Source of the DNA: Lachnospiraceae bacterium
Lineage (GTDB): Bacteria > Bacillota > Clostridia > Lachnospirales > Lachnospiraceae
Length of the DNA stretch: 61,095 nt
Assembly: GCA_017526985.1 (NCBI GenBank)
Contig: JAFXQR010000005.1
Location: 1 to 61,095 of the forward strand
Reading direction: 5' to 3'
Shown here: piece by piece, positions 1,839 to 43,256 of the stretch
Layout of the letters: every line of letters starts with the position of its first letter
Position numbering within the stretch: position 1 is the first letter of the stretch
Notes under the pieces: model-generated
What the model saw: only the letters and a program-made list of their open reading frames with translations
What the model was told of the DNA's origin: nothing
The model's database searches: none
Translations under genes and position numbers: made by a program

Positions 1839-3530
1839 TCACTCATTGTATGCGATTCTCTGTACTTCCTCCATAGTTGTAACTCCTTCTTCCAGGAGCC
1901 GCAGACCTGCCATCTTGATGCTCTCCATACCCTGGCTCTGCACTGCATACTTGGTGATCTCTTCTGCCGTGGCTCCGGCAGCGATCATGGCACGCACATT
2001 TTTGTCAGCCACCAGTACTTCATGGACAGCGATACGGCCGGCATACCCAGTATTGTGGCACTTCGCACAACCTACAGCCCTCTTTGCAGTAGGGATATCC
2101 CGTCCGGCAAACTCCCTCTCGTTATCATCCAGACCTACCACTTGTCCGCAGTACGGGCACACCTTACGCAAAAGTCGCTGCGCCACGGCCCCTACCAAAG
2201 CAGAGGACAACAGATACGGCTCCGCTCCCATATCGATCAGACGGATGATAGTGGATACAGCATCGTTGGTATGCAGGGTAGAAAGCACCAAGTGACCGGT
2301 GATGGCGGCTCGCAGGGAGATGCTGGCGGTCTCGGGATCTCGGGTCTCACCTACCATGATAACATCCGGGTCTTGTCGCAGCAATGCACGCAACCCCACT
2401 TCAAAGGTGAGTCCTGCGGTCGGATGTACCTGCATCTGGTTCAGATGTGCCAGGTTCTTTTCCACCGGATCTTCAATGGTAGAGATATTCACCGGCTTGG
2501 TGGCTAAGGACCCCAATGCCATATACAACGTGGTTGTCTTACCGGAACCGGTAGGGCCGGTGATATAGATCAGACCATTCGGCGATTTCAGCATTTTAAT
2601 AAACTTCTGATAGTTATTCGGTGTCATACCGAAAGTATCACTGTGATCGATATCCGAATTGGATGCCAGGATACGCATTACCACCTTCTCACCAAATACG
2701 GTGGGAATCACGCTGACACGGACATTGACGATCTGGTCGCGGATACGGATACGGAAGTGTCCGTCCTGCGGCACACGGCGTTCGGCAATATCCAGCTCCC
2801 CGATGATCTTGATACGCGCCACCAACGCGTTCTGCACATTCTTGTTCAGCGTCATATAGTTGAGCAATACACCGTCGGTACGCATACGCACCAGGATCTC
2901 TTTTTCAAACGGTTCGATATGCACATCAGATACGCCATCCTGATACGCCTTATCCAACAAGGAGTTTACCAGGTTGATGATCGGTGCATCATCGGCGGTC
3001 ACATTGGCATCAATGATGACTTCCTGTGTCTCGCTACTGGCCGACGCATTCTCACTCGCATTTGCTGCTGCCTGCTTGGTCTTTATCGCCGCATAATGAT
3101 AGGTGATGGCATCCTTCAGCGGCTGGGATTCCGCCAGCAGTGTATGGACATTCATACCGGTGGTCTGACGCAGATCCTCGATAGCATATAAGTTCAGCGG
3201 GTCGTTCATCGCAACGGTGAGCAGGCCTTCCTGCAAAGACACCGGCAGCATCATATAGTGTTGCGCCATCTGAATGGGAATAGTCTTGACTGCTTCTTCC
3301 TCTACCGGATAAGTGGAGATATCGATCAGGCTGGTCTGCAGACGGTCTGCCAATGCGGTCAGCATCTGCCGCTCCTGCACATATCCCTGCTCGATCAGGA
3401 TCTGACCGATACGCTTCGAACGGTCCTGCTTCTGCAGCGCCAGAGCCTCCATCAGTTGCTGCTCCGTGATATAACCGGAGTTGACCATCAGGTCGCCCAG
3501 TCGTATTTCTTTTATGAGTTTATTATCCAT
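1839..3530 (-). CDS. pilB: PilB/GspE-type assembly ATPase
   Basis: This 563-residue protein is the cytoplasmic hexameric ATPase that powers pilus extension. The N terminus carries two MshEN-type repeats: RLGDLMVNSGYITEQQL near residues 10-27, then RIGQILIEQGYV near 40-51. MshEN domains of this kind bind cyclic di-GMP in other PilB proteins. The motor domain has Walker A GPTGSGKTTT (near residue 325), a Walker B/Asp-box region with VGETRD, and paired CxxC motifs (CPYCG, CAKCH, about 455-490) that bind zinc in this family. It lies 32 bp behind the PilO-like gene, in one operon with pilC and the PilMN fusion. No PilT retraction ATPase is encoded in the window. The family assignment is secure; c-di-GMP binding is inferred from the motif. 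Confidence 0.95.
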   Translation of the reverse strand: MDNKLIKEIRLGDLMVNSGYITEQQLMEALALQKQDRSKRIGQILIEQGYVQERQMLTALADRLQTSLIDISTYPVEEEAVKTIPIQMAQHYMMLPVSLQEGLLTVAMNDPLNLYAIEDLRQTTGMNVHTLLAESQPLKDAITYHYAAIKTKQAAANASENASASSETQEVIIDANVTADDAPIINLVNSLLDKAYQDGVSDVHIEPFEKEILVRMRTDGVLLNYMTLNKNVQNALVARIKIIGELDIAERRVPQDGHFRIRIRDQIVNVRVSVIPTVFGEKVVMRILASNSDIDHSDTFGMTPNNYQKFIKMLKSPNGLIYITGPTGSGKTTTLYMALGSLATKPVNISTIEDPVEKNLAHLNQMQVHPTAGLTFEVGLRALLRQDPDVIMVGETRDPETASISLRAAITGHLVLSTLHTNDAVSTIIRLIDMGAEPYLLSSALVGAVAQRLLRKVCPYCGQVVGLDDNEREFAGRDIPTAKRAVGCAKCHNTGYAGRIAVHEVLVADKNVRAMIAAGATAEEITKYAVQSQGMESIKMAGLRLLEEGVTTMEEVQRIAYNE

Positions 3531-3562: not shown

Positions 3563-4423
3563 TTAATTCTTCTTGCTCGCCACTTCTACTCCGGCCTTTT
3601 CACTATCGTACATATACAGTTTCAGGCGAATGGTCAACTGGCGATCTCTGCTGTCTGCCACCATTACACTGCCATCTTCAAAGGTATATACCACAGGTGC
3701 CATATCTTCCCAGGAAAAACCGGTCACACGAATGGACGGCTTGGTTAGGATATCATCCAAAAAACGCTGCGTCTTTTCTACCGAGCCCGTTAATACAATG
3801 GTCACTTCCGCGCTGGTGATACCTGCCGCCGTTGTATTCTTGGTCAGCATCTGCTTTTCGGAATAACTCTCTAACGGAGTCTTGGTAATCTCGATCATCA
3901 ATGGTGTTTCCTCAGCACCTTCCCCTCCCTTACCAGCAGACGATGCCGTTGTTCCTGTGGCCGTAGTGTTTTCCAACGCAGTCGATGAGGAAGATGCCGA
4001 AGATGTCGATGAGGATTTCTGTGAGCGTAGCTTCTTTCCCAATTCCGAATATCTATACGGCGTCTCATCCTCCGCAGCCGTCGGCATCGAAATGATCAGA
4101 TCCTTCGCGCGCAGGCCGAAGTCAAGTACATACATGGTAAACATCTTATCGATCTCGGAGGAATCCATGGGCTCATAGTATTCTTCCGTTGCCGTTGCCA
4201 GATCTTCCTCAAATTTTTCCACCAGGATCTGTGCCGACATCAGCCCCGTGTTCTTGGTCTCATTCTGCTGTTTCAACGCCTCAGCCGAAGCAATGCTTTC
4301 ATTCGTCTTGTTGATCGTCTTGATGATCGGACGCATCACGATCCAGCCGAATACAAAGGCGATCACAATGAACCCCAGCATATATAACAATTTTTTGTCG
4401 CGTGCTGTTAATGTTGCTTCCAT
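3563..4423 (-). CDS. PilO/GspM-like inner-membrane assembly protein
   Basis: This 286-residue protein has a short cytoplasmic N terminus, one membrane helix (about residues 12-32, LLYMLGFIVIAFVFGWIV), then a helical segment and an exported alpha/beta-looking domain with a Ser/Thr/Ala-rich linker near residues 135-165. Topology, size and position directly after a PilM-PilN fusion match PilO, which pairs with PilN in the alignment subcomplex. Sequence identity to PilO is not obvious by eye, as is usual for this family. The start lies 3 bp after the PilMN stop, so the two are probably translationally coupled. Confidence 0.65.
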   Translation of the reverse strand: MEATLTARDKKLLYMLGFIVIAFVFGWIVMRPIIKTINKTNESIASAEALKQQNETKNTGLMSAQILVEKFEEDLATATEEYYEPMDSSEIDKMFTMYVLDFGLRAKDLIISMPTAAEDETPYRYSELGKKLRSQKSSSTSSASSSSTALENTTATGTTASSAGKGGEGAEETPLMIEITKTPLESYSEKQMLTKNTTAAGITSAEVTIVLTGSVEKTQRFLDDILTKPSIRVTGFSWEDMAPVVYTFEDGSVMVADSRDRQLTIRLKLYMYDSEKAGVEVASKKN

Positions 4424-5944: not shown

Positions 5945-7138
5945 TTAATTTGCTCCGATATTCTGGTAGCTCTGATAGATCGGGGTAATAACACCGATCA
6001 TAACGAAGCCGACGATCACTGCCATAATAATGATCGTTACCGGTTCAATATATTTCACCAGACGCGCCATCGCCTGTTCTGCCTTGAAATCCAGATCATT
6101 TGCAATGGAGGTCAACATCTTATCCAGCATACCGGTTTCCTCACCGACACGGATAACGGAGGGCAGTTTCACGATGAATCCGTCCACTTTTTCGATCGCA
6201 TCCGAGAGTGATACACCAGCCTGCAGATCTTTGTTCACCTGCTCAAACTGTCCCTCTACATATTTATTACCAATGGTCTGACTGGCGATCACCACGCAGC
6301 GATCTACCGGAATGCCTGCCGAATACAGCGAACTTAAGGTTCTGGCAAATCGTGCAGAATAAATAGTATTATTTAACTTACCAATCTTACCTTTGGTCTT
6401 GATCGTATCCACAAACAAACGCACCTTAGGCACACGCAGCAGGATACGCCCAAAGAAGATGCCTGCAGCGCCGAAAATAATAATCACATACCAATAGCCG
6501 GACACAAAGTCGCTGATCGCGATCAAGATACGCGTAGTGATCGGCAATGAAGGCATCTGAGCAAACAACTCTTGAAACTGCGGCATAACAAAACCAAAGA
6601 TGGCCAGTACCACTCCGACGATCATTGCCATCAGGATCTTGGGATAAACCAATGCACTCTTGGTATTTTCTTCCAATTGAAATTCTCTTGTGAACTGATC
6701 CGCCAGATTGAGTGCGGTGATATCCATATTACCGGAAGTCTCCGCTGCACGGAACATATAGATCATTAGCGGTGGAAAGGCCGGATAAAGATTTTCCATC
6801 GTGGTAGACAAAGCAATACCTTGTACCACTTTTTCCCGCAACTCTGTAAATAAATATTTTTCATAAGGCGTAATGGATTCGTTCCCGGCCAGGATCTCCA
6901 GCAAACGCACCAACGGTACACCGGCCTGCGTCATGGTGCCCAGCTCGGTACAGAAATTTGCTAACTCACTTTTCTTCAGTGGTTTTAAAGAAACTTTTTT
7001 GCCGGCAAGCGAAGCACTCACCAGCATCTGCCCTTTGTTTCGCAGTTTCTTCTGCAGATCCGCTTCATCAACTGCTATGATCTTGCCACTATACTGTTTT
7101 CCGTCCGCATCCTGCGATCTAAACTTGTATTCCGGCAT
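5945..7138 (-). CDS. pilC: PilC/GspF-type platform protein
   Basis: This 397-residue polytopic protein has the T2SSF domain twice (about residues 65-190 and 265-390) and three membrane helices near 165-190, 215-235 and 370-392. The N terminus MPEYKFRSQDADGKQYSGKI is the usual PilC opening. It forms the inner-membrane platform that couples the PilB motor to pilin insertion. Length and domain order match the family. It lies 42 bp upstream of the PilMN fusion in the same direction. Confidence 0.95.
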   Translation of the reverse strand: MPEYKFRSQDADGKQYSGKIIAVDEADLQKKLRNKGQMLVSASLAGKKVSLKPLKKSELANFCTELGTMTQAGVPLVRLLEILAGNESITPYEKYLFTELREKVVQGIALSTTMENLYPAFPPLMIYMFRAAETSGNMDITALNLADQFTREFQLEENTKSALVYPKILMAMIVGVVLAIFGFVMPQFQELFAQMPSLPITTRILIAISDFVSGYWYVIIIFGAAGIFFGRILLRVPKVRLFVDTIKTKGKIGKLNNTIYSARFARTLSSLYSAGIPVDRCVVIASQTIGNKYVEGQFEQVNKDLQAGVSLSDAIEKVDGFIVKLPSVIRVGEETGMLDKMLTSIANDLDFKAEQAMARLVKYIEPVTIIIMAVIVGFVMIGVITPIYQSYQNIGAN

Positions 7139-7206
7139 CTCTTATCTCCTGCTGCCTTATTTTTCGATCAAACTCTGCCGGGACTCTCCGAATCCTGACA
7201 CTTGTA

Positions 7207-7671
7207 TTACTGATTCCATTCCGTGGTATAGGTCAGGATATGGAATGCATAATAAATCTCCCAACGACCATCTGTAGCACTGCCGCCATCAATTGCCATA
7301 TATTCCACAAGGAATGGTCCTTTTCTGTATGTAAAGGATCGTGGCATACTATTCTCATCATCCCAGCCGGTAAGAACAATCTGCCCCTCCGCATAAGACA
7401 ACTCCCGAACGCGTCGTGATGCCCCCTCCAGCATACCATCTGCCGCTTCCGGTACATACAACGCATCCCCTGTTGCGGCACACTCCAGATTGACCAGTCG
7501 CAACGCCACACGCACATCTCGGGCTTCCTGCATCGCGTGATGCGCCTCCGCATTGACCTTTGCTCCGACAAAAAAGATAGCCAGCACGATCAACACGATC
7601 ACTCCGGGAAGAATCATTTTTTTTAGAACCGACCATACGGTTCGTTGTTCAAATACAATCTCTTCTTCCAT
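7207..7671 (-). CDS. Small membrane protein of the pilus operon, unknown function
   Basis: With the ATG at 7669-7671 the product has 154 residues: an acidic start (MEEEIVFEQR), one membrane helix (about 21-38, LPGVIVLIVLAIFFVGA), a helical stretch continuing outside (NAEAHHAMQEARDVRVALRL) and a small C-terminal domain. This is pilin-like in topology, but there is no G-F-T-L-V-E cleavage motif. An upstream in-frame ATG at 7729-7731 would add 20 residues that look non-native and has no ribosome site. The chosen ATG also lacks a ribosome site, but a TGGTATACT extended -10 ends only 7 nt before it, so a leaderless transcript is possible. It sits between the giant prepilin and pilC. Confidence 0.65.
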   Translation of the reverse strand: MEEEIVFEQRTVWSVLKKMILPGVIVLIVLAIFFVGAKVNAEAHHAMQEARDVRVALRLVNLECAATGDALYVPEAADGMLEGASRRVRELSYAEGQIVLTGWDDENSMPRSFTYRKGPFLVEYMAIDGGSATDGRWEIYYAFHILTYTTEWNQ

Positions 7672-7748
7672 AGCTAATAGTATACCATACTTTTCCGGTT
7701 GTTTGTATAAATTCGATAGCAGATCACACATTAGTGAATCTTAAATCG

Positions 7749-10700
7749 TCATGTTTCATCACTGTCAGCCTCGCTATCATTTTCCTCTTGCTCTTCTCCG
7801 GCGTCAGTTTCCTCGGAACCACCATCATTGCCACTTTCGGAGTTCTGCGGTTCATCCACATCGTTCTGTGTAACATTAGCCGAATTGTTAGAATCTCCAT
7901 CATTATCGGTATTATCACCTTCTCCGGCATTATTGTTACTATCAGTCTCATCAATTTCCTGATAATCCGCAGTATTGGCATCATTCTGATTGTCCGCATT
8001 ATTGACATCATTTTGGACTTCTCCGGTGTTGCCATTGTTATCCGATACCTCTTCTCCACCGTCCTCATTTCCATCATTATCGGCAGGTGCATCATCATTC
8101 TGCGCCCCACTGGACGGGGATGCTCCATTTGATGGTGTCTCCTCTTCCGAAGGTGTCATCTCTTCCGAAGGTGTCGCCTCTTCCGAAGGTGTCGCGTCAG
8201 CATTTTCATTTTGACCATTCTGCTCATTTACGACATTTTCATCCTGCTCTGCTGCCGGAACCGGTGTCGGAGAGGTAATGACTGTCCCATCATTCATCTC
8301 ATCCACTACTAGCGGATCCAATGCCCCATCCGTCGGTGTCGGAGTGACCGGTGCCGTAATCGCCGGAGCCATCATCATCAAAGGTGCAGAATTCGTATTG
8401 GTTGTGGAAGCAGAATCATTGGAATCATCTGTTTCAATTTCTATATCATCGATGCTTCCCTTATTCTGTCCAACATAGCCAACACGCGGCTCTGTTTTGT
8501 CATAGTTTGATCCAATCTCAACATCATTGATCTTGTATACCACAACTCCACCGGTATTGCCGCCATCCGGAGTGATAGTACCGCATTTTCCGCCCGATTC
8601 ATTCAATCCCAAAATATAGCCCGTTCTGCTGGCATTCACAATTATCTTTCCACCATCCTGCGGAATCACCATACGATCACCATTACTTCTGCCATATGTA
8701 TGTACATTCCTACCCATAACGCCACCAGCAGTTCCATTCGCCGCATTAATCGTATAACTAACTCCCGATGCTACTTTTATAACAGTTCTCGGTAGAAACA
8801 TAGATTCATTATTTCCTACCATACCACCTGCAGTATTATTGTTATTAACCGTAACTTCAGAATTTCCCACTACTGAAATGCTCAATGTTGCTATATCATC
8901 CCAGTTATATCCTTTCTTTGTTGTCCCAAATAAACCACCAGCATAATTGCTACCGCTAATCTTGACCCCATCAAAAGTAGCATACAAGTTTCCCCAAAAT
9001 GATGTTTCATTTTCAGAGTTTTTAAACACACCCGACACATCTCCAACACAACCAATAGCACCACCAACACCTTGTCCACCCTTAATCTCAGTATTTTGCA
9101 ATGCTATGTTAATCGTTCCGACAATATCTCCGGTACCGTGGAAGACGCCGACTGCTCCGATCACGCCTCCTACACCTCTGCCATTTCCGGTAATAGACTT
9201 AATTCCCCTTACATTCAAAGTCCCGCCTTCAGTACCAAGAATGCCATCCATGCCCCCAAAGCATCCTCCTACATAATGATCTCCCGACACCGTGATCTCA
9301 ATCTTTTCATCTATTGTAAGTGACCCTGTCAATTTTCCATACATGAATCCAACAAGCCCCCCAATATCATATCTGTCGCCTTGTTGTGGGGCAATTTTAA
9401 CTGTACGGATAGCGGATTTATTATCATTCACAATTTTTAATTCATGTATACTACCATTTTCGGTTTCACACTGTCCTACAACACTACCTACAGAAGTAGT
9501 CCCGGAATAAAGTACAAAATCTTGCCACAAATTCAAAGACAAGGTTCCCAATATGACCTTAGACTCCAGATCTTCACCGTTCTTTCCGCCACCGATCTGT
9601 CCAATAACGCCGCCTACGCCTTTTCCTTGTCCATCACCACCAATCGCCGTCGTCATTTTATTCGAATTCTCATATGCAACGGTGACATATGTTATAAGAT
9701 TCTTACCAGCCTCCCCCTTTTGGATTGATCCGATCACACCACCAATACTGCCATAGCGCCCCTGAATCTTTCCACCGTCCAAGCGTGTAGTAAGATTCCC
9801 ATTCATATATCCCTCACCAATAAATCCTACAACCCCACCTATATTCCATCCGCCTGCGATCAAACTATCTGATTGTAATTCTATATCAATATTGCAATTT
9901 ACTTTAGACGCATTAACGATCCTGCCTGCGAACCCGCCAGTACCGCCAGTAATTCTGTCACCACTATCTGCGGAGGTTATTAGTTTTACATTGGTACTTG
10001 TAACATCTTCCCCTGCAATTCCAACTGTAGAATCATCAATTTCTCCAAAAAAGCCACCTGCATTCCTATAGGAAGCCGCTACACTAATAGATCCATTCCC
10101 AATAGGTGTTCCTAAAGTCGCAGATTTCACAAGTCCAACATAACCACCAACATAAGTATGTGCATGTATATCAACCGCTACTCCACCCGTAAGCTTTGCA
10201 ATCACACTATCCTCAGTAATCTGCCCAACCAAACCACCTACCGAATCTGCTTTCGGTATATCAAAAGAGATAGAACTTTTTACCTCTGCATATGTTTCAT
10301 CTTCAGCTAGAATTAATCCTACATCTCCTACAGTACTTCCTTTTCTGACCCAACCAGCAACTCCACCAACACCTATAATTGAGTTTTCCGGAGCTGTGAT
10401 CAGTTTTGCTGTACCCTTCAATACAGTAGATGCTGCTAACACTGTCGGTGTCAGATCATCACCACCAATACACCCTATACATCCTCCCATATAATTACCC
10501 GGGCCATACAGAGGGGCAAAGTTTTCTATTCCTGTGCCATCATACGAAGCTACGATAGTTCCATATGTTGCAGATCCATCAAGAAGTCCCACACATCCAC
10601 CAACAAATGTACCCTTGGCTCCATTTGTCGCATCCAGTTTCTTCATCTGGATTGTACTGCTTGCCGCTACTGCATTCGAAGCTGTAATAACAGAATTAAT

Positions 10701-13700
10701 ATTGCCTGCCGTTGTTTGAATATTCACATATCCAATTGCACCACCTACTAAAGCCGTTCCTGCTACAGCATTGGGAGAAGCAATATTACTCGTAATATTT
10801 CCTGTCATATTAGGCATACTGACAGCACCAATTGCTCCACCTACATATTCAGTACCCTTAATCATCTGACTGGAAGCATTTGCAGGAATCGTAACAACCA
10901 CATCTATGGCAAAATTGGAGGCTCCACTTAATTCGTTTTTGTCATCATATACATATCCGATCGCACCACCCACATATTGTCCGATTCCGTTAATCATCGT
11001 TGACGGATGTAATGATACCACATAGCTCTTATCACCAGTCATTGCTACAGTTCCATTATGCTGATTAGCCCCCTTCAGATCATGTAAATACATGCAGCCA
11101 GTCATACCTCCAACATACTTTCCGCCTGCAATGTTCATAGCCAACATATCAGTGCCTATTTGTGTCGGCATCTTTATTTCTACACCATAAGCACCACCAT
11201 ATGTTCCGATTACGCCAATGACACCACCAATATTTTTATTGTCTGCCTTTACAGTAGAATAATCCGTGCATCCTTTTACAGAAAGCTGTGCTATAGGATC
11301 AGCACCTCTGAGTTCCTCTTCTTCCGGTATTACTCTCTGAAGTGCCATCTTTATGCCTGTTGCATTACCGTATTGCTGCCCGCAACCTACTACTCCGCCT
11401 ACATTCCTATTTCCACATACCTCCGCAGATCCAAACATCTGCGTTTTTATTTCACTATATGCCGACTGTGCCAATAAATAACCAACACAACCACCAATAT
11501 TAATTCCTTTCCCCTTTATCTGAACATCGTCACAGATACTTGCTGTAACCGTTACAATCTTTCCAGATGCGCCCTTTACTTCCTTTCGAACACAGCCTAT
11601 GGCTCCACCCACATTATTGCCATTTGCTAGTATCACGGCATTCTTCTTCAATAAACTATATACATGCGAGCCATTTTGCAATCCATAAATATATCCTACA
11701 GCACCACCCGCGCCATAACAATACTCCTGAGTGCCTTTCCAGTATTGATCTGCTGTTTGATTATTCACATAATTCTCAGCATAAATCACTCCCTCCCCTT
11801 CTGATCTAATATAAATCAGTGGGTATGCCGGAGTATTAGATGTCATATGATACGATCCGATTGCCGCACCAACCCCAACATTTGATGATGTTGTTCCCAT
11901 ATTAAAATTACAACAGATCACTCCGTCATTGCGCACATCAAAAACATAAGTATCTGCCCCGTTACCAAAATCTTTTATATACGCAATCCCTGCTGCCGCC
12001 GAACTTGCTTGCCCACGAATCTTATTTCCAGTCGAGTAATTGATAGCTTCATCTTTTGTTCCAATCCTTCCAGTCACCGTATTATATGCGAATATATACA
12101 TCTCTTTTGCAGAACCTTCTTGTATATATCCCACAGCTCCACCTATATATCTGCCATAACTATTATTAGAACTTAAAATATATCCCTCATTTATACTTTT
12201 AATACTGAGAATTTTACTTACATCATGTTTATATATCTGTCCTATTGCGCCTCCAATGCCCTCATAGCCTACCGCCGCATCATCTTTGTGTCCTCCATAC
12301 TGCCAGATATACGAATTCGGCGCAAGCTTTACCGATATAGCGTATTCCGCATCCGCCCGTTCAGTTATCGAGACGCTTCCTTCGTTGTAGTTCGGTTGAT
12401 TCATCGGCACTTTCTGAGCAAAATATCCTTCAACAACATAACCTACTGCACCGCCAATATATTTTCTGCCCATTAAGAGACTATTAATATTAGTCGGAAA
12501 CACAACTGCATTACCCGCAGTTTGTTTTTCACTATCAACACTCAAGCAGGCATCCACGCCACCATGAACATTGCCGATCACACCACCTATATAATAAGCA
12601 CCGGCAATTGCAAAATTACCATCTGTTTCAATATAGCCTGCCGAACTAGCCTCCTTAGAATAATATCCTATCACACCGCCAATCCCTGCCGGCTGATCTG
12701 GATCTGAAACCCCCTTTCTGATGTACATTCTGATTTTTTTCCAGTTCGTTCCATCCCAGATTCCAGCTAACAATATAGGGTTACTCATCCTTATTGTATT
12801 TTCTTCCTTCGATACATTTTGGTCATTAACTCCTAACATTCCGTTTTGCACGCCGATCAACCCCCCCATAGGATAAGGTTTCATCTGATTACCATCCGCC
12901 AGTTTATAATTTTTATTATCATCTATATTAATAAATGAATCATTTGTATCATCTCCATGCTTAAAAATACGCACCAAAGTCTCTGCCACGCTCTTTCCAC
13001 TTGGCTCTGTTTCTCCATCTGCAACGCTTTCCAATGTCAAGCAGAAATTTTCACCCCGTATATTACGAATTGTTCCCTCATTCTTACAAACAAAACCATA
13101 TCCTTCGTCAGTAGATACAAAGGATTGTCTGCGCATCTGTACATTACGGATCACAGATGTTTGATCCGTAGCATTAGACGATGCCATATTATTTGAGGCA
13201 ACAAGCTCTTGCTTTTCAGCAATTACGGAGATAGCTGGCCATGACACAAGGAGCGGCGTTGTAATATGCTCCCGTCTTACTCCGGAAGGAGAATGTCCCA
13301 CCAGTTTCCCATCACTTCCAATATCATACACAACCACATCACTGGTATATTGTTCTCCTACCTTCGTATACCAATTCAAATCTCTATGTATCTCATAGGT
13401 GACAATATCCGTATCTTCTATTGTGCTCGGGATGAATTTCTCCATAAAGCGCATGTTATAGAGATGGCGGAATGATGTGATACAAGCCAGTTGTGTATCA
13501 TGCTTGTTCCCGAGACTACCTGCTCCCAGATCGCCAAAATAGGTATTGCAGACTGCATAGCCATAGCTGTCTCCCAATGCTTTTTGGTCGGAATATGCAT
13601 AATTTCCGTTTTCCAAAAGATATACCGGATCATCATAAGCACGCTTTGCGTTGATTGCTCCAGAAGAAGGCAGATCTGTGGTTACATTTAATTTTTCCAG

Positions 13701-15263
13701 TTTATCATCTGTCGAAAAGGCATCCACGGATGCAGTCATAGACACATAAATATTTTTAGGCGCTATGTTCATTGTAGTTACTGCTGCATTGGTATCCGGC
13801 AAAAGTCTGGTAATGCTGCTGCTGAGACTGTACTGACGGGTTGCTGTATTTTTTCCATATTCGAACAATGCCTTTCTGCTCATCATAGCATCCAGTGCAA
13901 GCGTATAAGAAACATAGTCTTTCTGTTCGCCACTATCATACTTTCTGACCACATACGAAACTGTCATCGGGAACCAGTAGTAATTACTATCTGCCCCAAG
14001 CTCCATTTGCGTTGCAGCATTATAATCAAAATTGGCGTTACTCTTGTTGACATACACCAGTGCCATGGTTTCTATCGACGCCTTATATCTGGTAAACTGC
14101 CTTTGGAGATCATCCGTCATGGTATCTACAGAATATACCGCCCCTGTTGTTGCGTTCACCTGTCCGTCTTTCAGGATGCCCTTCGCAAAATCTTCTGCAT
14201 CAAAATACAGTAAATTCGCATAACTGTCCGTTTTGATATCCGGATTTAGAGCAGATGTAATCTTTTGCGTCGGATATGCTTCACTGATCACCAGATCCGC
14301 CAGCCATTTTCCATCACCATTGCTGTTCAGATCATACTGATCATAAAGAGAGGCCGTATAATGAATATGATAGGGTTTTCCTTCCGCATCTGTATTTCCC
14401 GTAATCTTCTTATCTCCATTGTAAACACTAAAAGACAACTCCAGCCGTTCGCCGTTGCGCAAAGCCAGTTCTGCAAATTCCATTCGATTATTTATCACAG
14501 GGGTATATACGGAATCCACCGCCGCAGGATTGCCACCGTTATAATATCCTACCAGACTCTTATCTGAACGATATGCACTGTCACGATATGGTACCGATCT
14601 GGGATTTTCGCTTACGGTACCATTAACTGCCTTTTCATCCCAGCCAGCACGCTTTTCATCATAGAATACAGCATAGGCATTCGCTGTATAATGAACCGTC
14701 TTTTCATCACCGCCGAGCGTTTTTTCCACATCAAACTCGATGGTAAATGTAGCATCCAGGATGGTTGTATCATAGAAATAACCGCCTACCAGTTTCTTGA
14801 TAGCTTCATTATCTTCCCCGCTTCCGTCCTTGGTATAGGTCAGGGTATAGCGCATATGCACGGAATCCCCGACAGTACTGGTAGCCGTAGGAAAGTTATT
14901 AAATGTCGTTTCATCATAACAGTCATCGAGAGCCGTTCCCTCAGTATCCTTGTCATAATTCTGCGCATTATAGCCATCCGCGTGTTTCTTTGCTGCTGCC
15001 TCATTATCGATCCAAGTCTCAAGGATCCAGTCTTCAATCTCACCGTTATTCTTCTTGCGCTCCAAAGCCGTCTGCACCGCCTGATAAATACTCTGTGCAT
15101 TCTGCTCATTTCGATCAAAACGGGATTTATCAATATAACCAATGATTGAAAAAACCGCTACAGACGATAAAATTGCCAAAATTGCGAGCACCACCATAAG
15201 CTCCACCAAAGTGAAGCCCTTTTGATCCCTTATAAAATTTCCTCTTGTTGTCTGTTCTCTCAT
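7749..15263 (-). CDS. Giant GLUG-repeat prepilin, putative pilus-borne adhesin
   Basis: One uninterrupted 2,504-codon frame. Residues 1-16 are a basic prepilin leader ending in DQKG, then the mature N terminus FTLVELMVVLAILAILSS with Glu at position 5, so the protein should be handled by a prepilin peptidase and inserted like a pilin. Residues of about 40-800 are a beta-rich region of no recognised family. About 800-2190 hold more than 30 GLUG-like turns of the form YVGGAIGYV (for example KYIGGAVGYV, QYVGGAIGYV, GVGGVIGQI), spaced roughly 35-50 residues apart, predicting an elongated beta-solenoid. The last 250 residues are Asp/Asn/Glu-rich with TPSEE repeats and have no sortase motif or membrane helix. 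GLUG motifs are known from bacterial adhesins and IgA-protease-type surface proteins. The role as filament-tip adhesin is inferred. Confidence 0.9.
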   Translation of the reverse strand: MREQTTRGNFIRDQKGFTLVELMVVLAILAILSSVAVFSIIGYIDKSRFDRNEQNAQSIYQAVQTALERKKNNGEIEDWILETWIDNEAAAKKHADGYNAQNYDKDTEGTALDDCYDETTFNNFPTATSTVGDSVHMRYTLTYTKDGSGEDNEAIKKLVGGYFYDTTILDATFTIEFDVEKTLGGDEKTVHYTANAYAVFYDEKRAGWDEKAVNGTVSENPRSVPYRDSAYRSDKSLVGYYNGGNPAAVDSVYTPVINNRMEFAELALRNGERLELSFSVYNGDKKITGNTDAEGKPYHIHYTASLYDQYDLNSNGDGKWLADLVISEAYPTQKITSALNPDIKTDSYANLLYFDAEDFAKGILKDGQVNATTGAVYSVDTMTDDLQRQFTRYKASIETMALVYVNKSNANFDYNAATQMELGADSNYYWFPMTVSYVVRKYDSGEQKDYVSYTLALDAMMSRKALFEYGKNTATRQYSLSSSITRLLPDTNAAVTTMNIAPKNIYVSMTASVDAFSTDDKLEKLNVTTDLPSSGAINAKRAYDDPVYLLENGNYAYSDQKALGDSYGYAVCNTYFGDLGAGSLGNKHDTQLACITSFRHLYNMRFMEKFIPSTIEDTDIVTYEIHRDLNWYTKVGEQYTSDVVVYDIGSDGKLVGHSPSGVRREHITTPLLVSWPAISVIAEKQELVASNNMASSNATDQTSVIRNVQMRRQSFVSTDEGYGFVCKNEGTIRNIRGENFCLTLESVADGETEPSGKSVAETLVRIFKHGDDTNDSFINIDDNKNYKLADGNQMKPYPMGGLIGVQNGMLGVNDQNVSKEENTIRMSNPILLAGIWDGTNWKKIRMYIRKGVSDPDQPAGIGGVIGYYSKEASSAGYIETDGNFAIAGAYYIGGVIGNVHGGVDACLSVDSEKQTAGNAVVFPTNINSLLMGRKYIGGAVGYVVEGYFAQKVPMNQPNYNEGSVSITERADAEYAISVKLAPNSYIWQYGGHKDDAAVGYEGIGGAIGQIYKHDVSKILSIKSINEGYILSSNNSYGRYIGGAVGYIQEGSAKEMYIFAYNTVTGRIGTKDEAINYSTGNKIRGQASSAAAGIAYIKDFGNGADTYVFDVRNDGVICCNFNMGTTSSNVGVGAAIGSYHMTSNTPAYPLIYIRSEGEGVIYAENYVNNQTADQYWKGTQEYCYGAGGAVGYIYGLQNGSHVYSLLKKNAVILANGNNVGGAIGCVRKEVKGASGKIVTVTASICDDVQIKGKGINIGGCVGYLLAQSAYSEIKTQMFGSAEVCGNRNVGGVVGCGQQYGNATGIKMALQRVIPEEEELRGADPIAQLSVKGCTDYSTVKADNKNIGGVIGVIGTYGGAYGVEIKMPTQIGTDMLAMNIAGGKYVGGMTGCMYLHDLKGANQHNGTVAMTGDKSYVVSLHPSTMINGIGQYVGGAIGYVYDDKNELSGASNFAIDVVVTIPANASSQMIKGTEYVGGAIGAVSMPNMTGNITSNIASPNAVAGTALVGGAIGYVNIQTTAGNINSVITASNAVAASSTIQMKKLDATNGAKGTFVGGCVGLLDGSATYGTIVASYDGTGIENFAPLYGPGNYMGGCIGCIGGDDLTPTVLAASTVLKGTAKLITAPENSIIGVGGVAGWVRKGSTVGDVGLILAEDETYAEVKSSISFDIPKADSVGGLVGQITEDSVIAKLTGGVAVDIHAHTYVGGYVGLVKSATLGTPIGNGSISVAASYRNAGGFFGEIDDSTVGIAGEDVTSTNVKLITSADSGDRITGGTGGFAGRIVNASKVNCNIDIELQSDSLIAGGWNIGGVVGFIGEGYMNGNLTTRLDGGKIQGRYGSIGGVIGSIQKGEAGKNLITYVTVAYENSNKMTTAIGGDGQGKGVGGVIGQIGGGKNGEDLESKVILGTLSLNLWQDFVLYSGTTSVGSVVGQCETENGSIHELKIVNDNKSAIRTVKIAPQQGDRYDIGGLVGFMYGKLTGSLTIDEKIEITVSGDHYVGGCFGGMDGILGTEGGTLNVRGIKSITGNGRGVGGVIGAVGVFHGTGDIVGTINIALQNTEIKGGQGVGGAIGCVGDVSGVFKNSENETSFWGNLYATFDGVKISGSNYAGGLFGTTKKGYNWDDIATLSISVVGNSEVTVNNNNTAGGMVGNNESMFLPRTVIKVASGVSYTINAANGTAGGVMGRNVHTYGRSNGDRMVIPQDGGKIIVNASRTGYILGLNESGGKCGTITPDGGNTGGVVVYKINDVEIGSNYDKTEPRVGYVGQNKGSIDDIEIETDDSNDSASTTNTNSAPLMMMAPAITAPVTPTPTDGALDPLVVDEMNDGTVITSPTPVPAAEQDENVVNEQNGQNENADATPSEEATPSEEMTPSEEETPSNGASPSSGAQNDDAPADNDGNEDGGEEVSDNNGNTGEVQNDVNNADNQNDANTADYQEIDETDSNNNAGEGDNTDNDGDSNNSANVTQNDVDEPQNSESGNDGGSEETDAGEEQEENDSEADSDET
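8143..8196. repeat. Three 18-bp tandem repeats encoding TPSEE(A/M)
   Basis: Units at 8143-8160, 8161-8178 and 8179-8196 share TCTTCCGAAGGTGTC with one to two changes. A degenerate fourth copy precedes them at about 8125-8142. They encode the threonine/proline/glutamate stretch in the C-terminal tail of the giant prepilin and are a likely site of length variation. Confidence 0.8.
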
Positions 15264-15272
15264 ACGCTTATT

Positions 15273-16169
15273 CTATCTCTTATTATCTTCCGCAAAACAA
15301 AGAACTGCCTCACGGCTGTATACCAGTGTATCCTCTGACTGTTTTGCATAATCTGATTCATATACTTTGATTGTTGCCGTCACACAGACCGGTCTCTTGT
15401 CTGCCACAAATGTGGAATCCTTCACTACCGTTTCGTATACCGGTTCCGAATAGGTTATCGACACGGTAAAACCATTATAAGCTGCTACCGTAAACGGATT
15501 GGTATAATCATATGTTTCTCCCGGATAATAAACGGCAATGTCTTTTTCATCCCTCTTTACATTCTGCACCGTTGTCGCATAATAAGCACAGTGCAGATAT
15601 CCCGGCCTGGTTTCCATGGGCATCTTTTCATCTGTCAGATTGTCCGTTCCCTTCGGGAAAAGACGATACACAGCCTTAGATGTCACCAAACCGATTTTGT
15701 AATCCGATGTCAGCAAATCTTTATAATTTTTCGTCGATATCCCCACATTCCAGTACAGTGCTTTTTCATAACCTTCATTGATGCGTAAAACCAAAACATT
15801 TCCACCCGTTGGATTATCCAGCCCCGCTACTGCCGCTTCCTTCTCCTGCAGCATTTGGTTCAACATCGTCTGATCACCAAAGGTTGCCTTTGTCGGATTG
15901 GGTAGATCAAACACCCGTACATCCATCACTCCGGTCACATATGCGGACGCACATTCCTTTCGCAATGCATCTGTCACCGTATCTGCCACCATCTGTGCTC
16001 TGGACAGTTTCTGCATATTCAGAAAGATACTGACCACCGGAAACATCAGTGATGCAACCGCTGTCGCCAGGATCGCCGTCAATGCCATTGAAACAATCAG
16101 TTCCACCAGTGTGAAACCACCATTTGCTCTATATTTTTTTTTGGAGATCCCTCTTTCCCAAAAACGCAT
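15273..16169 (-). CDS. Minor prepilin, GspJ/PilW-like
   Basis: This 298-residue protein has a long basic leader ending RANGG, then FTLVELIVSMALTAILATAV with Glu at mature position 5. The C-terminal domain of about 230 residues is beta-rich. Size and position second or third in a minor-pilin set match GspJ or PilW-type subunits of the initiating tip complex. GGAG lies 9 nt before the ATG. It starts 6 bp after the gene encoding the GspI-like subunit and ends 9 bp before the giant prepilin gene, so translation of the two is probably linked. Confidence 0.85.
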   Translation of the reverse strand: MRFWERGISKKKYRANGGFTLVELIVSMALTAILATAVASLMFPVVSIFLNMQKLSRAQMVADTVTDALRKECASAYVTGVMDVRVFDLPNPTKATFGDQTMLNQMLQEKEAAVAGLDNPTGGNVLVLRINEGYEKALYWNVGISTKNYKDLLTSDYKIGLVTSKAVYRLFPKGTDNLTDEKMPMETRPGYLHCAYYATTVQNVKRDEKDIAVYYPGETYDYTNPFTVAAYNGFTVSITYSEPVYETVVKDSTFVADKRPVCVTATIKVYESDYAKQSEDTLVYSREAVLCFAEDNKR

Positions 16170-16175
16170 CCAATC

Positions 16176-16499
16176 TTACTCCGTCGTGTTCACTTCGTTC
16201 TGATACACCCAATATGTCAATCCTTCCTGTGTTGTATATTGCACCGCATATACCCCAGGAATTGTCGTATCTTCTTTCTTTGTCAGGTTTGCTTCCCCAC
16301 TGTTCTTATACAACTTGTTCTGTAAATGTTTCATACCCTGATCCGCCTCTCTACGAGTATCGATCGCATACCGCTGCGCTTCACCTGCCGCAAGAATAGA
16401 ATTACCAAAAATTGCCAGAACAATCAGGAGCACCATAAAAGCCACCATTACTTCCACAATGGTCTCGCCCCGGTTTCTATTCAGTTTTGTTCTTCTCAT
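16176..16499 (-). CDS. Minor prepilin, GspI/PilV-like, atypical cleavage site
   Basis: With the ATG at 16497-16499 the product has 107 residues: leader MRRTKLNRNRG, then ETIVEVMVAFMVLLIVLAIFG. The Gly at -1 and the Glu at mature position 5 are kept, but mature position 1 is Glu in place of the usual Phe or Met. Small size and the VEVMVAF block resemble GspI/PilV. An upstream ATG at 16512-16514 would overlap the preceding gene by 13 bp; I prefer the later start because it gives a normal leader and sits just behind the previous stop. Confidence 0.75.
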   Translation of the reverse strand: MRRTKLNRNRGETIVEVMVAFMVLLIVLAIFGNSILAAGEAQRYAIDTRREADQGMKHLQNKLYKNSGEANLTKKEDTTIPGVYAVQYTTQEGLTYWVYQNEVNTTE

Positions 16500-16501
16500 T
16501 T

Positions 16502-16963
16502 CTATTCCGCGCATTTAACAAAACCTTTTGTCGTGTCTAGCTGATAGATCCCTGTCCATAGGTAGGTCGCCTTACCCACATTTGACTTTACCGTCAGTAT
16601 AAAGCGTCCGGCTGCATCTTTTTTTACTTCCGCATCAACGGTAGCATCCGGCATTCCCATAAAACCAGATCGGTACATCACCTGTTTTTCTGCCGTAGGC
16701 TCCGTACTGCTCACATAGGTTTCCAGATTCAGCAGAGGCTTGCCGTCATCTCCCTGATTCACGATCCTCTCTTCCAGCGCATTGCCCAGACTGGTAGCCA
16801 GTTCGTAGGCCTGATCCTGATTTAACTGCTGGTTGGCCGAGGCCATAATGATCCCCGCCAGGATCCGCAGCGATACTGTTATACCGATGATCACCACGGT
16901 CAGGGCTGCCACCAGGATCAGGCTGGAGCCTTTATTTGATTTTAAATACTTAAATTTGTGCAT
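16502..16963 (-). CDS. Minor pilin lacking Glu5, GspK/PilX-like
   Basis: This 153-residue protein starts MHKFKYLKSNKG, then SSLILVAALTVVIIGITVSL. A Gly at -1 and a long hydrophobic helix are present, but mature position 5 is Leu, not Glu. GspK and PilX-type subunits often lack this Glu and cap the pseudopilus tip. The rest of the protein is much shorter than GspK, so it is PilX-like in size. It is the first gene of the pilus operon, 104 bp behind nadD, with GGGAAAG ahead of the ATG. Confidence 0.75.
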   Translation of the reverse strand: MHKFKYLKSNKGSSLILVAALTVVIIGITVSLRILAGIIMASANQQLNQDQAYELATSLGNALEERIVNQGDDGKPLLNLETYVSSTEPTAEKQVMYRSGFMGMPDATVDAEVKKDAAGRFILTVKSNVGKATYLWTGIYQLDTTKGFVKCAE

Positions 16964-25397: not shown

Positions 25398-25877
25398 TCA
25401 CTCCCCACGATCCGTTTCTTCTTCCGCATCTGTATATTTCTCCGCCAGCCGGTCCACCCGCTGAATAGTGCGTACGATCTGTGAGGCACGCATACGGTCT
25501 GCGCTATGCTGCGCCTCCACCGTCCAGTCCCCGGTATAGCCTGCCAGAGGCGGTGCATCCAGAGTCCCTCTCACCGATGCCGTGATGCTACCATACTCCA
25601 CCCGCACCTCTGCTTCCGGACACTCCATCAGCACCAGCTTATGTTCCAGCATCTCCGCGATCTTCTGCTGCACAAAGGTACCGATCTCTTCATTGGATGC
25701 CTCCGCCATACGCCCTCCCCGGATCACCGCAGCAGAAACGGCATAGTTTACTGCAGTCCGGTCATACAAAAGCATCCCGGTCCACAACAGCAGAAAGGTG
25801 ATCATCAGCGACAGCGGAAGGATCACGCAGGCTTCGATGGTCATCATCCCCCGGTTGTTTCTCCTTGTATTCTTCAT
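25398..25877 (-). CDS. tadE: TadE-like minor pseudopilin
   Basis: This 159-residue protein begins MKNTRRNNRGMMTIEACVILPLSLMITFLLLW: a basic leader, a Gly, then T-I-E-A before the single membrane helix, the TadE/Flp-type processing pattern. The extracytoplasmic part is mostly helix followed by strands. Its ATG overlaps the stop of the peptidase gene by 4 bp (ATGA, 25874-25877), so translation is coupled. The frame is open far upstream, but that part is antisense-like sequence over the peptidase gene and is not used. TadE-type pseudopilins are needed for Flp pilus assembly. Confidence 0.85.
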   Translation of the reverse strand: MKNTRRNNRGMMTIEACVILPLSLMITFLLLWTGMLLYDRTAVNYAVSAAVIRGGRMAEASNEEIGTFVQQKIAEMLEHKLVLMECPEAEVRVEYGSITASVRGTLDAPPLAGYTGDWTVEAQHSADRMRASQIVRTIQRVDRLAEKYTDAEEETDRGE

Positions 25878-26317
25878 CCCGGAAGCACCTGCAAAAGAAA
25901 CACAACATGCCCCGCCGCCAGAAACGGCAGAAAGGGCAGTCTGGTTTTGGCATCCGCCCGATGTAGCGCGATCAGTACTACCGCAACCACTGCACTGAAC
26001 AACACCGCCGTCATGACCAGTTTCCCGCAGCCCGTACCGCCATACAGGAAGCCCAGGATCATCACAACGATCCCATCCGCCATACCAATGCACCCACTCC
26101 ACTTTCCCAGCAGCACCAAACTGCCACCCAGCAGTACCCCGATGACTTTCTGCTGCCAGTCCGCCGGATCTGCCATAAGGATCAGCGCTACGCTCCCCAA
26201 ACCAAAGGCCAGCAGAAACCACACCGGCAGTCTCCGCACACGCACATCCATCACACTGCCCAGCAGCAGCGCCAGTCCCGTCCACAGTTCCCTGCCAAAT
26301 AACCATTCCGTATCCAT
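25874..26317 (-). CDS. A24-type prepilin peptidase, second of the Tad locus
   Basis: From the ATG at 26315-26317 the product has 147 residues and about five membrane helices. The two catalytic aspartates of the A24 family are visible: Asp24 in DVRVRRLP and Asp80 in GMADG. GGGTG lies ahead of the ATG, and the start is 26 bp past the previous stop. An earlier ATG at 26369-26371 would add a basic 18-residue piece overlapping the upstream gene. Two peptidases in one Tad operon suggest one acts on Flp and one on TadE-like subunits or on the type IV pilins encoded 8 kb away. Confidence 0.8.
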   Translation of the reverse strand: MDTEWLFGRELWTGLALLLGSVMDVRVRRLPVWFLLAFGLGSVALILMADPADWQQKVIGVLLGGSLVLLGKWSGCIGMADGIVVMILGFLYGGTGCGKLVMTAVLFSAVVAVVLIALHRADAKTRLPFLPFLAAGHVVFLLQVLPG

Positions 26318-26343
26318 CTTTTCACCCTTTCCCTTTTTATGTT

Positions 26344-27216
26344 TTACAAACTTCCGCCACATCTGGAACAAGCCCGCTTTCCGCCCACCTGCGAAATGGG
26401 GATCTCATATACCGTGCGTTTCAGACCGCTGCATCCCAAAGAGGTGTGATAGCGGTCACCTTCTTTTGTAATGTAATAGGTCTCCTGCGCCGAAAAACGC
26501 TGTCCGCAGTACTCACATGCCTGATATATCGCCCCGGCTGTGTTACGGCAGTCCCCAACCTGTTCCGCCGATACCGCCTGTATTGACAGATCCAAATGGG
26601 TACAGCTCCGGCTCAGGTGATACACCGTTCCGGTCTCCGTCACATAGACCATCCGCTCTTCCGCCTCCCCGGCAGCACTGCCCACCGCAAAGCCGGTCCA
26701 GGCATGCGTCCTGGCACGATTTACGAGCAGCTGCTCCGGAATGCCGAATACATTGCAGCGCGGCTCGATGCGGGAGGTTGCGATCAGATCCACCATATCG
26801 TCCTGCACCAGCACACGGGAACGCCACAAACCGATCTCTCCCTGTACGCCCATCTGACGGCGATACGCCTGCGACACACGCTCCTGCAATGCACTCGAAA
26901 CATATACATCTGCCAGCACCGTGGCCGCCATACCTTCCACATTTTCGCCTGCAGCACTGCCACCGTTTGCCGCATCCTGCGTTTCCTGTGTCTCCTGCGC
27001 CTGTGCAGCCTGCGGTTTTTCCAGCAAACACTCCGCCGACGCATAGAGAGCGATCTGCTTGCCGATCCGGCACAATTCCCGATCCATTGTCATGGAATAA
27101 TGCAGCATCTCCATCACGGAAAGCAATGCCAGAAAGAAAAACAGATATAAGGGCAACGCCACCGCAGCTTCCAATGTGAGGCTGGCATGACAGCTTCTTA
27201 CCAGATACTTACGCAT
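26344..27216 (-). CDS. TadE-like pseudopilin with two C-terminal Cys/His modules
   Basis: This 290-residue protein opens MRKYLVRSCHASLTLEAAVALPLYLFFFLALL, a TadE-type helix with the L-E-A motif. An Ala/Gln-rich linker follows at about 68-95. The C-terminal 100 residues contain the same unit twice: VYVTETGTVYHLSRSC with ACEYCG (His200, Cys205, Cys235, Cys238), then YYITKEGDRYHTSLGC with ACSRCG (His257, Cys262, Cys283, Cys286). Units of this form look like small zinc-binding modules. They would lie outside the membrane. It overlaps the preceding DUF5702 gene by 8 bp. Confidence 0.8.
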   Translation of the reverse strand: MRKYLVRSCHASLTLEAAVALPLYLFFFLALLSVMEMLHYSMTMDRELCRIGKQIALYASAECLLEKPQAAQAQETQETQDAANGGSAAGENVEGMAATVLADVYVSSALQERVSQAYRRQMGVQGEIGLWRSRVLVQDDMVDLIATSRIEPRCNVFGIPEQLLVNRARTHAWTGFAVGSAAGEAEERMVYVTETGTVYHLSRSCTHLDLSIQAVSAEQVGDCRNTAGAIYQACEYCGQRFSAQETYYITKEGDRYHTSLGCSGLKRTVYEIPISQVGGKRACSRCGGSL

Positions 27217-28726: not shown

Positions 28727-28741
28727 TTGTTTTTCCTGCAA

Positions 28742-28770
28742 AAGACTGCCGGGCCCGATGCTGCCGGCAG
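28742..28770 (-). terminator. Hairpin after flp, probable partial terminator
   Basis: CTGCCGG (28746-28752) can pair with CCGGCAG (28764-28770), and on the minus strand the stem is followed by TCTTTTG. The short T tract suggests an attenuating or RNA-stabilising hairpin rather than full termination. It would let the Flp pilin be made in excess over the downstream genes. Confidence 0.4.
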
Positions 28771-28806
28771 CCTCCTTTTGGTCCCATTGCTTTTTGATTA
28801 TTCTAT

Positions 28807-28992: not shown

Positions 28993-29079
28993 TTTCCGCT
29001 CCTCCTTTCTTATCTGTTCTTATGGAAAATCCTTCCGCCTCCTGTCGCATCTCTTTCTCCCACGGTAAGCCCGCCTACC

Positions 29080-30555: not shown

Positions 30556-30576
30556 TTTCTTTTCCTCCATGTCCTA

Positions 30577-33549: not shown

Positions 33550-33610
33550 AAACAACCTCTCTTTCTGATCTTTTGTTTTATTTTGGGCTTACTTTTCTTC
33601 TGAACTGCAT

Positions 33611-43214: not shown

Positions 43215-43256
43215 AACGATGAACCTCCCTGTTATCGCTATTCTCCCCCATCCGTA

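What the first reader, a model, noticed from the sequence alone, without database searches (positions are those of the whole stretch)
7749..15263. Giant 2,504-residue GLUG-repeat prepilin inside a Gram-positive type IV pilus operon
Seen: an intact class III prepilin leader and Glu5 helix at the start of one uninterrupted 7.5-kb frame, more than 30 turns of the form VGGAIGYV, an acidic TPSEE tail, and no sortase motif, membrane anchor or autotransporter part. Known: GLUG motifs occur in surface adhesins, and pilins are normally 100-250 residues. Inference: the protein is inserted like a pilin and carried at the tip of, or along, a filament, which makes it a pilus-delivered, extended beta-solenoid adhesin. 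I know of no standard annotation for this architecture.
Basis: partly seen in the sequence, partly recalled or inferred. Interest (0 to 1): 0.93.

Follow-up and report, generated by a model that had tools for sequence, protein, structure and literature searches.

The report
Giant adhesin-like pilin in clostridial pili
A relative of rumen Lachnospiraceae encodes a pilus subunit about ten times the usual size, made of a normal pilin start joined to a long repetitive arm; similar giants sit in the pilus operons of many relatives and are probably a built-in sticky tip of the pilus.

Summary
One uninterrupted 2,504-codon frame lies on the minus strand (15263 to 7749). It has a class III prepilin leader with Glu5, a ~450-residue pilin module, a conserved ~325-residue block, 32 GGxxG repeats (100 shuffles: mean 1.3, maximum 4) and an acidic tail. 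It lies in a pil operon beside K-, I- and J-like minor pilins. The 'GLUG' label is only indirectly supported: Pfam Glug scores 12.4 bits against a cutoff of 20.5, but one homologous giant scores 42.6.

It is not a one-off. In the genus 22 of 35 genomes encode a giant. Of 23 genomes with the operon's PilM/N gene, 21 have it; in the other two the contigs break at its place. I examined 51 GGxxG giants (smallest uncut 1,177, largest 4,121 aa), chosen for size. Two genomes of another family carry a ~500-aa repeat-free version in the same slot, so the repeat arm is a removable module.

Best reading: a giant modular minor pilin in the H slot of the HIJK tip complex, presenting a repeat arm as adhesin. 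Modular pilins are published; this size, conservation and slot are the new variant.

The parts
7749..15263 (-). giant prepilin gene, 2504 aa
   Evidence: PF07963 37 bits; 9 same-genus orthologues of 2276-2449 aa, one of them (L041) running off its contig
15216..15263 (-). class III leader peptide, residues 1-16 ending in Gly16
   Evidence: sequence; invariant G16, F17, T18, E21 in 10 of 10 rows
13869..15215 (-). pilin module, residues 17 to about 465 (hydrophobic alpha1 helix with Glu5, then head domain)
   Evidence: a naturally short 511-aa version (G706) aligns with residues 14-458, E 8e-49; a 498-aa one (G482) with 12-255, E 2e-48
12894..13868 (-). linker block, residues 466-790, with RHLYNMR and WPAI motifs
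   Evidence: R, H, N, R of the block invariant in 12 of 12 long giants aligned without the window; window alignment
8712..12869 (-). 32 GGxxG repeats, residues 799-2184, probable beta-solenoid arm
   Evidence: no structure model available
7752..8393 (-). acidic, low-complexity C-terminal tail, residues 2291-2504
   Evidence: identity to orthologues falls to 3-10% beyond residue 2300
15273..16169 (-). J-like minor prepilin, 298 aa
   Evidence: PF07963 32 bits; position
16176..16514 (-). I-like minor prepilin, 112 aa
   Evidence: PF07963 23.7 bits; position
16502..16963 (-). K-like minor prepilin without Glu5, 153 aa (KG|SSLILVAAL)
   Evidence: sequence; no Pfam hit; a K-like neighbour by a loose heuristic at 43 of 51 giants
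7207..7731 (-). conserved one-helix protein of unknown role between giant and PilC
   Evidence: relatives near 19 of 51 giants
5945..7138 (-). PilC platform protein (T2SSF)
   Evidence: 162.6 bits
4427..5902 (-). PilM/PilN-like protein
   Evidence: PilM_2 22.2 bits, below cutoff 27; position
3563..4423 (-). PilO-like protein
   Evidence: T2SSM 15.2 bits, below cutoff; position
1839..3530 (-). PilB assembly ATPase (MshEN + T2SSE)
   Evidence: T2SSE 414 bits, MshEN 59.8 bits
1175..1651 (-). probable major pilin, 158 aa
   Evidence: TIGR02532 33.8 bits

Best explanation
The gene encodes a giant modular minor pilin. Its N-terminal ~450 residues are a true type IV pilin that is inserted by its hydrophobic helix, cut after Gly16 by prepilin peptidase and used by the PilB/PilC machine (shown: motif, operon, homology; inferred: processing). 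Together with the K-, I- and J-like pilins of the same operon it takes the place of the H subunit of the conserved HIJK tip complex (inferred from gene order, from the K-like pilin lacking Glu5, and because the only other Glu5 prepilin in this operon is the probable major pilin). The rest of the protein, an RHLYNxR block followed by some 30 GGxxG repeats, forms an extended beta-solenoid arm outside the cell (inferred from the repeats and from one homologue that passes Pfam Glug). Carried at the tip of a retractable pilus, the arm acts as the effector that binds plant fibre, glycans or other cells, much as PilY1 does in diderms or PilB/PilC in Streptococcus sanguinis (inferred). The arm is a module present or absent on a common pilin base.
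For: Leader and Glu5 above curated cutoffs and invariant in 10 of 10 rows. Leaderless queries: 10 of 10 loci carry the leader; three of the record titles are not labelled MAG (NK4A179, XPB1003, AB2028). Genus co-occurrence, 35 genomes: giant with PilM/N 21, giant without 1 (G017), PilM/N without giant 2, neither 11; Fisher p 2e-6. The two exceptions are assembly breaks: the G009 contig begins inside a TPTPTEE tail of giant type, and in G033 two contigs end on either side of the expected place. Near 51 GGxxG giants: K-like prepilin 43, another small prepilin 47, assembly genes within 8 kb 36. Same-slot short forms without repeats (511 and 498 aa) align with residues 14-458 and 12-255, while two genomes of their genus have 2,449- and 2,780-aa giants. 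L140 passes Pfam Glug, 42.6 bits; L158 carries six Flg_new stretches, 227 bits. PilT-, PilB- and PilC-like genes and a 247-aa A24 peptidase lie elsewhere in the genome. HIJK and K-without-Glu5 as tip complex: Shahin 2023, passages read.
Against: No structure model could be made, so the solenoid is unproven. PF07581 fails in this protein; a repeat profile from the orthologues does not reach many other giants above shuffled controls, nor the genome's own Glug protein. The H assignment rests on order only: TIGR01708 (GspH) scores 30 bits against a cutoff of 80 and covers residues 14-66; the K, I and J names have no profile support over cutoff; other lineages have extra small prepilins beside the giant. 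Some giants have no recognised pilin or assembly gene on their strand nearby (two in L142, one in L155). No binding domain was recognised in this protein. Nothing shows that so large a subunit is polymerised.
Confidence: 0.68

Rival explanations
1. A membrane-held surface protein that merely borrows a prepilin leader. It is cleaved by the peptidase but stays anchored by its helix and is not built into a filament.
For: Very large size. Two giants at one locus (L142) and one in L155 have no recognised pilin or assembly gene on their strand in the fetched stretch.
Against: Close co-occurrence with the pil operon in the genus and position near K/I/J-like pilins; the short form in the same slot looks like an ordinary large minor pilin.
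Confidence: 0.17
2. A structural spacer or initiation scaffold, not an adhesin: the arm stabilises the tip complex or carries the nascent pilus tip through the thick Gram-positive wall, without a ligand.
For: Repeat number is fairly stable among the window and 9 orthologues (26-35) and all modules are under purifying selection.
Against: Lengths among the giants vary from 1,177 (uncut) to 4,121 aa with extra C-terminal modules such as Flg_new in one and a sub-threshold CBM_5_12 in another; two genomes have the slot without the arm, so passage through the wall does not need it there.
Confidence: 0.12
3. A receptor for DNA or a secreted cargo (ComZ-like or type II secretion-like), with uptake or secretion rather than adhesion as the task.
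For: ComZ of Thermus carries a beta-solenoid in a pilin argued to be at the tip, and binds DNA (abstract).
Against: The protein has more acidic than basic residues (D+E 300, K+R 179), which disfavours DNA binding.
Confidence: 0.08

Closest known systems
Modular pilins PilB and PilC of Streptococcus sanguinis (Raynaud 2021 PMC8179133; Shahin 2023 PMC9934059; passages read)
   Same: Class III leader, pilin module, grafted surface-protein module, monoderm host, minor-pilin operon, predicted tip location.
   Different: PilB is about 50 kDa with a vWA module, PilC has a lectin module; here ~2,500 residues with a repeat arm. The most extreme case cited in the passages read (12 repeated domains) has 860 residues. 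Raynaud names an architecture IPR012902-IPR011493, described there as an M26 peptidase; from memory IPR011493 is the GLUG entry (no call confirms this), so a prepilin-GLUG protein may already be in their table, which I could not open.
ComZ of Thermus thermophilus (PMC6561018, abstract and section list seen)
   Same: Beta-solenoid domain built into a pilin, argued to fit only at the tip.
   Different: Solenoid inserted in the pilin framework and far smaller (size recalled); binds DNA.
PilC/PilY1 tip adhesin of diderm type IV pili
   Same: Extremely large tip effector resting on the HIJK minor pilins; called absent in monoderms (Shahin 2023 passages).
   Different: PilY1 is not a pilin and has a C-terminal beta-propeller (passages); no such Pfam domain was listed here.
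GLUG-repeat surface proteins (PF07581), e.g. the 1,214-aa protein on contig C62 of this genome
   Same: GGxxG repeats of similar look; weak profile match over 64 columns, probability 19%.
   Different: By eye an ordinary signal-like N-terminus and a C-terminal membrane helix, no prepilin leader.

Membership tests
Type IV prepilin (class III signal peptide) | Leader ending in G before F-x-x-x-E and a hydrophobic helix, above curated cutoffs | tested here: met
   PF07963 37 bits/21.2; TIGR02532 33.5/16.3; only membrane-like stretch in the protein
Type IV prepilin (class III signal peptide) | Encoded with type IV pilus assembly genes | tested here: met
   PilB, PilC by Pfam; PilM/N, PilO by weak hits and order; genus co-occurrence
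Type IV prepilin (class III signal peptide) | Processed by prepilin peptidase and polymerised into a filament | not testable with these tools
   needs proteomics or microscopy
Type IV prepilin (class III signal peptide) | Size below 350 aa (PilFind criterion, PMC3244431, passages read) | tested here: not met
   2,504 aa
Modular pilin | Pilin module plus a separable extra module | tested here: met
   same-slot short forms lack the repeat part
Modular pilin | Extra module recognised as a known domain not specific to pili | tested here: inconclusive
   none in P0001; Glug 42.6 bits in homologue L140
GLUG repeat family PF07581 | Score over Pfam cutoff 20.5 | tested here: not met
   12.4 bits, E 1.57
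HIJK minor pilin complex | Group of four minor prepilin genes, one lacking Glu5 | tested here: met
   window order: 153 aa without Glu5, 112 aa, 298 aa, giant; names K/I/J rest on order and Glu5, not on profiles
HIJK minor pilin complex | Giant equals the H subunit by profile | tested here: not met
   TIGR01708 30 bits against 80, residues 14-66 only
Sortase-anchored surface adhesin | C-terminal LPxTG with hydrophobic stretch | tested here: not met
PilY1/PilC | C-terminal beta-propeller domain | tested here: not met
   no such Pfam hit at E<=1
Beta-solenoid | Predicted or solved solenoid fold | not testable with these tools

The most novel reading that the evidence does not exclude
These clostridial type IV pili need no PilY1 because their tip adhesin is itself a pilin: one giant subunit of about 1,200-4,100 residues, conserved in the H slot of the minor-pilin set, with a solenoid arm that is swapped, extended or lost while the pilin base stays. 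These would be among the largest pilins known, and size filters in pilin finding have hidden them.
Probability: 0.55. Interest if true: 0.82.

Novelty: new variant of a known kind. Interest (0 to 1): 0.73.

Why it matters
How monoderm type IV pili bind their targets without PilY1 is only known for a few models; this gives a concrete, conserved candidate and a natural experiment (the same slot with and without the arm). It also asks whether the pilus machine can take up a subunit of ~2,500 residues, and whether gut and rumen Clostridia attach with pilus-borne solenoids. The published Gram-positive finder PilFind accepts only proteins under 350 aa (PMC3244431, passages read), so it would miss such proteins by design.

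Tried and rejected
Rejected: sortase or autotransporter adhesin (no motif; no such Pfam domain); chance frame or assembly artefact (purifying selection in orthologues, nine same-genus orthologues, genomes not labelled MAG); phage origin (no tblastn match in 50,697 phage records at 1e-5); a fold from solved structures (repeat profile no match at E<=1; two other giants and the C62 Glug protein no match at 0.01). The N-terminal profile matched pilin helices in the PDB plus one weak DUF4270 line (E 0.052).

Led nowhere: Pfam scans of other giants gave mostly N_methyl; a repeat profile separated some lineages from shuffles but not all; comparison with the C62 Glug protein was weak (probability 19%, E 0.0012). 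My literature searches in the held library showed no report of this architecture (listings; passages of five papers read, and one abstract); the library lacks most subscription papers and supplements could not be opened.

Counts and drops: 57 prepilin frames of >=900 aa were found in the window and 52 fetched loci; 6 without GGxxG (leucine-rich-repeat class; five of them Pfam-scanned) were left out of the 51. Four of the 51 run off a contig end (L041, L146, L155, L159), so the 966 aa of L159 is a truncated length and 1,177 (L136) the smallest uncut one. Three of the 51 have only 4-5 motifs (L142 twice, L159). Loci L059-L067 hold the same genes as L036-L044 and were not counted again. Six other frames of >=900 aa without a recognised leader were set aside: two repeat-bearing fragments (L045, L046), one frame of leucine-rich look cut at its start (L050), three others. 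G017's giant (L171) was fetched later and is not among the 51. The loci were fetched because they had large frames, so the 51 are not a random sample. The K-like label is a loose heuristic and a few of its hits are probably false (for example in L147).

Full report
What is there. The minus-strand frame 15263-7749 encodes 2,504 residues without a stop. Residues 1-16 are a prepilin leader ending in Gly, residues 17 onward read FTLVELMVVLAILAIL with Glu5; Pfam N_methyl scores 37 bits (cutoff 21.2) and TIGR02532 33.5 (cutoff 16.3). No other stretch is membrane-like and there is no C-terminal sortase motif. A relaxed GGxxG motif occurs 32 times from residue 799 to 2179; 100 shuffles gave a mean of 1.28 and a maximum of 4. 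The tail is acidic and poorly conserved.

The GLUG label. Pfam Glug (PF07581) was not listed for this protein at E<=1; in the own-genome search it scored 12.4 bits, E 1.57, against a cutoff of 20.5. A 1,214-aa protein elsewhere in the genome has single Glug stretches over the cutoff but no prepilin leader. One homologous giant, L140, passes Glug with 42.6 bits, and one of 12 long giants matches Peptidase_M26_N (E 1.4e-6). I therefore speak of GGxxG repeats, probably Glug-like.

The operon. Upstream on the same strand lie a K-like prepilin lacking Glu5 (153 aa), an I-like one (112 aa) and a J-like one (298 aa); downstream a one-helix protein, PilC, PilM/N, PilO, PilB and a probable major pilin. 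PilM/N and PilO rest on weak profile hits and order; the K/I/J names on order and on the missing Glu5. A second locus on contig C132 holds ATPases of PilT and PilB type (T2SSE 164 and 439 bits), a 247-aa A24 peptidase and, by eye, PilC- and PilM-like genes and a prepilin.

Relatives. Nine other genomes of the genus hold orthologues of 2,276-2,449 aa (one cut by a contig end), one (G014) a copy in pieces; two genomes of a sister genus hold 1,993- and 2,115-aa versions. With a query that leaves out the leader, a scan of GTDB genomes gave 10 loci, all with the leader. Its two peptide patterns lie in the pilin and linker parts, so this scan could not find repeat-only relatives. The full-profile search of 392 genomes of the order had no such limit; at 1e-10 it found only the window, one same-genus and two sister-genus genomes, all with leaders. 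The repeat-only matches are fragments on short contigs or in pieces (G018:C44, G014).

Divergent giants. Other lineages of the genus carry a divergent giant beside the same kind of genes; its first 320 residues are 19-31% identical to the window's (which includes one genome of another family), and the RHLYNxR block and the start of the repeats can be aligned (the printed alignment was cut in part). In 12 long giants the R, H, N and R of that block are invariant. In the window and 52 fetched loci I counted 51 GGxxG-bearing prepilin frames with 4-42 motifs each, against shuffle means of 0.15-2.3. Their lengths run from 966 to 4,121 aa; four are cut by contig ends and the smallest uncut is 1,177. 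A profile of the repeats reaches some of the divergent giants (for example L158 at 3e-13, L054 at 3e-9) and misses others; the best shuffled control scored E 0.56.

Distribution. With a profile of the first 320 residues, 63 of 392 genomes of the order matched at 1e-12; 29 of these have a matching frame of at least 900 aa by my count of the table. In a class sample 26 of 391 matched, of which three genomes outside the order have giants (G519, G657, G508). In a phylum sample 4 of 398 matched at 1e-15 and no further giant appeared. At most five candidates per genome were scored in these three surveys, so they are lower bounds. In the genus, 22 of 35 genomes have a giant: 21 full-domain matches, one of them (G014) cut by a contig end, plus G017.

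Tie to the operon. PilM/N of the window's type was found in 21 of those 22 and in 2 of the other 13; Fisher's exact p is 2e-6. Among genomes at least 90% complete and at most 5% contaminated it is 16 of 16 against 0 of 7. The two exceptions are breaks in incomplete assemblies (72% and 67%): the G009 contig begins within a TPTPTEE-rich frame that stops just before the one-helix gene, as the tail of an orthologue does, and in G033 one contig begins inside the one-helix gene and another ends inside the J-like gene. Near the 51 giants a loose heuristic finds a K-like prepilin at 43, another small prepilin at 47 and window-type assembly genes at 36.

A removable module. Genomes G706 and G482, of another family in the class, carry before the one-helix gene and PilC a prepilin of 511 and 498 aa with no GGxxG motif. 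The first aligns with residues 14-458 of the window protein (E 8e-49), the second with 12-255 (E 2e-48). Two genomes of their genus carry giants of 2,449 and 2,780 aa with 23 and 31 motifs; G657's stands in the same slot, G508's beside it on the opposite strand. So the arm starts near residue 465, a boundary that rests mainly on G706, and has been gained or lost on a stable pilin base. In several genomes (L048-L052, L133) a second large prepilin lies nearby, with DUF285/BspA-type leucine-rich repeats in 5 of 5 scanned (best E 6.7e-103).

How it most likely works. Passages of Shahin 2023 and Anger 2023 (PMC10628169) say that H, I, J and K minor pilins form a tip complex, that K lacks Glu5, that bulky modular pilins fit only at the tip, and (Shahin) that the diderm tip effector PilC/PilY1 is absent in monoderms. 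In the window the giant is the fourth minor pilin beside K-, I- and J-like ones. I infer that it sits near the tip with its arm projecting, and that the arm binds a target. Weak hints for carbohydrate or surface binding come from relatives: a sub-threshold CBM_5_12 (21.8 bits against 26.2) in L057 and Flg_new repeats in L158. Against or missing: profile support for H covers only residues 14-66, many lineages have additional small prepilins and a few giants have no recognised pilus gene on their strand nearby, and no experiment was seen.

Comparison with the known. Modular pilins are published: more than 1,200 proteins, 264 architectures, the most extreme case cited having 12 repeated domains in 860 residues (Raynaud 2021, passages). 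That paper names an architecture IPR012902-IPR011493; I recall the second as the GLUG entry, which no call confirmed. PilFind requires fewer than 350 residues, its training pilins having at most 333 (Imam 2011, passages). The finding is thus a new variant of a known kind: far larger, conserved as a family, tied to one operon slot.

Confidence. That this is a real giant prepilin of the pil operon: about 0.97. That the repeats form a solenoid-like arm: about 0.85. That it is a tip-located part of the pilus: about 0.7. That the arm is an adhesin: about 0.6. These are judgements, not computed values.

Noticed in passing
L048, L049, L051, L052, L133 (large prepilins of 1169-1696 aa): A second class of large prepilin near the giant, with DUF285/BspA leucine-rich repeats and no GGxxG motif.
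   Followed up: partly
window 7207-7731: One-helix protein without leader, with relatives near 19 of 51 giants, mostly just before PilC; no family over cutoff.
   Followed up: partly
window 25398-34063: A Tad-type pilus cluster (CpaF-like ATPase and small A24 peptidase by profile, TadE/F- and TadB/C-like genes by eye) about 8 kb from the pil operon, so two pilus systems lie in one window.
   Followed up: no
window 42690-43259: A lone prepilin gene away from both pilus clusters; it matches the giant's leader region.
   Followed up: no
L043 giant, C-terminal tail: The tail of the orthologue from the 858,586-base scaffold (AB2028 by length) reads as RIPIRRIPTRR repeats, as if a low-complexity repeat had shifted frame; slippage, possibly phase variation or an assembly error.
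   Followed up: no
L172 about 7912-8592: Short 226-aa frame matching the giant pilin domain, with an in-frame stop reported inside the match: probably a broken copy.
   Followed up: no
L171 (G017) 6151-12990: A 2,279-aa giant with 39 motifs in a pilus locus with a PilB-like gene, in a genome where no window-type PilM/N was found.
   Followed up: partly
L057 giant, residues 1882-1923: Sub-threshold chitin/cellulose-binding module CBM_5_12 inside a giant prepilin.
   Followed up: no
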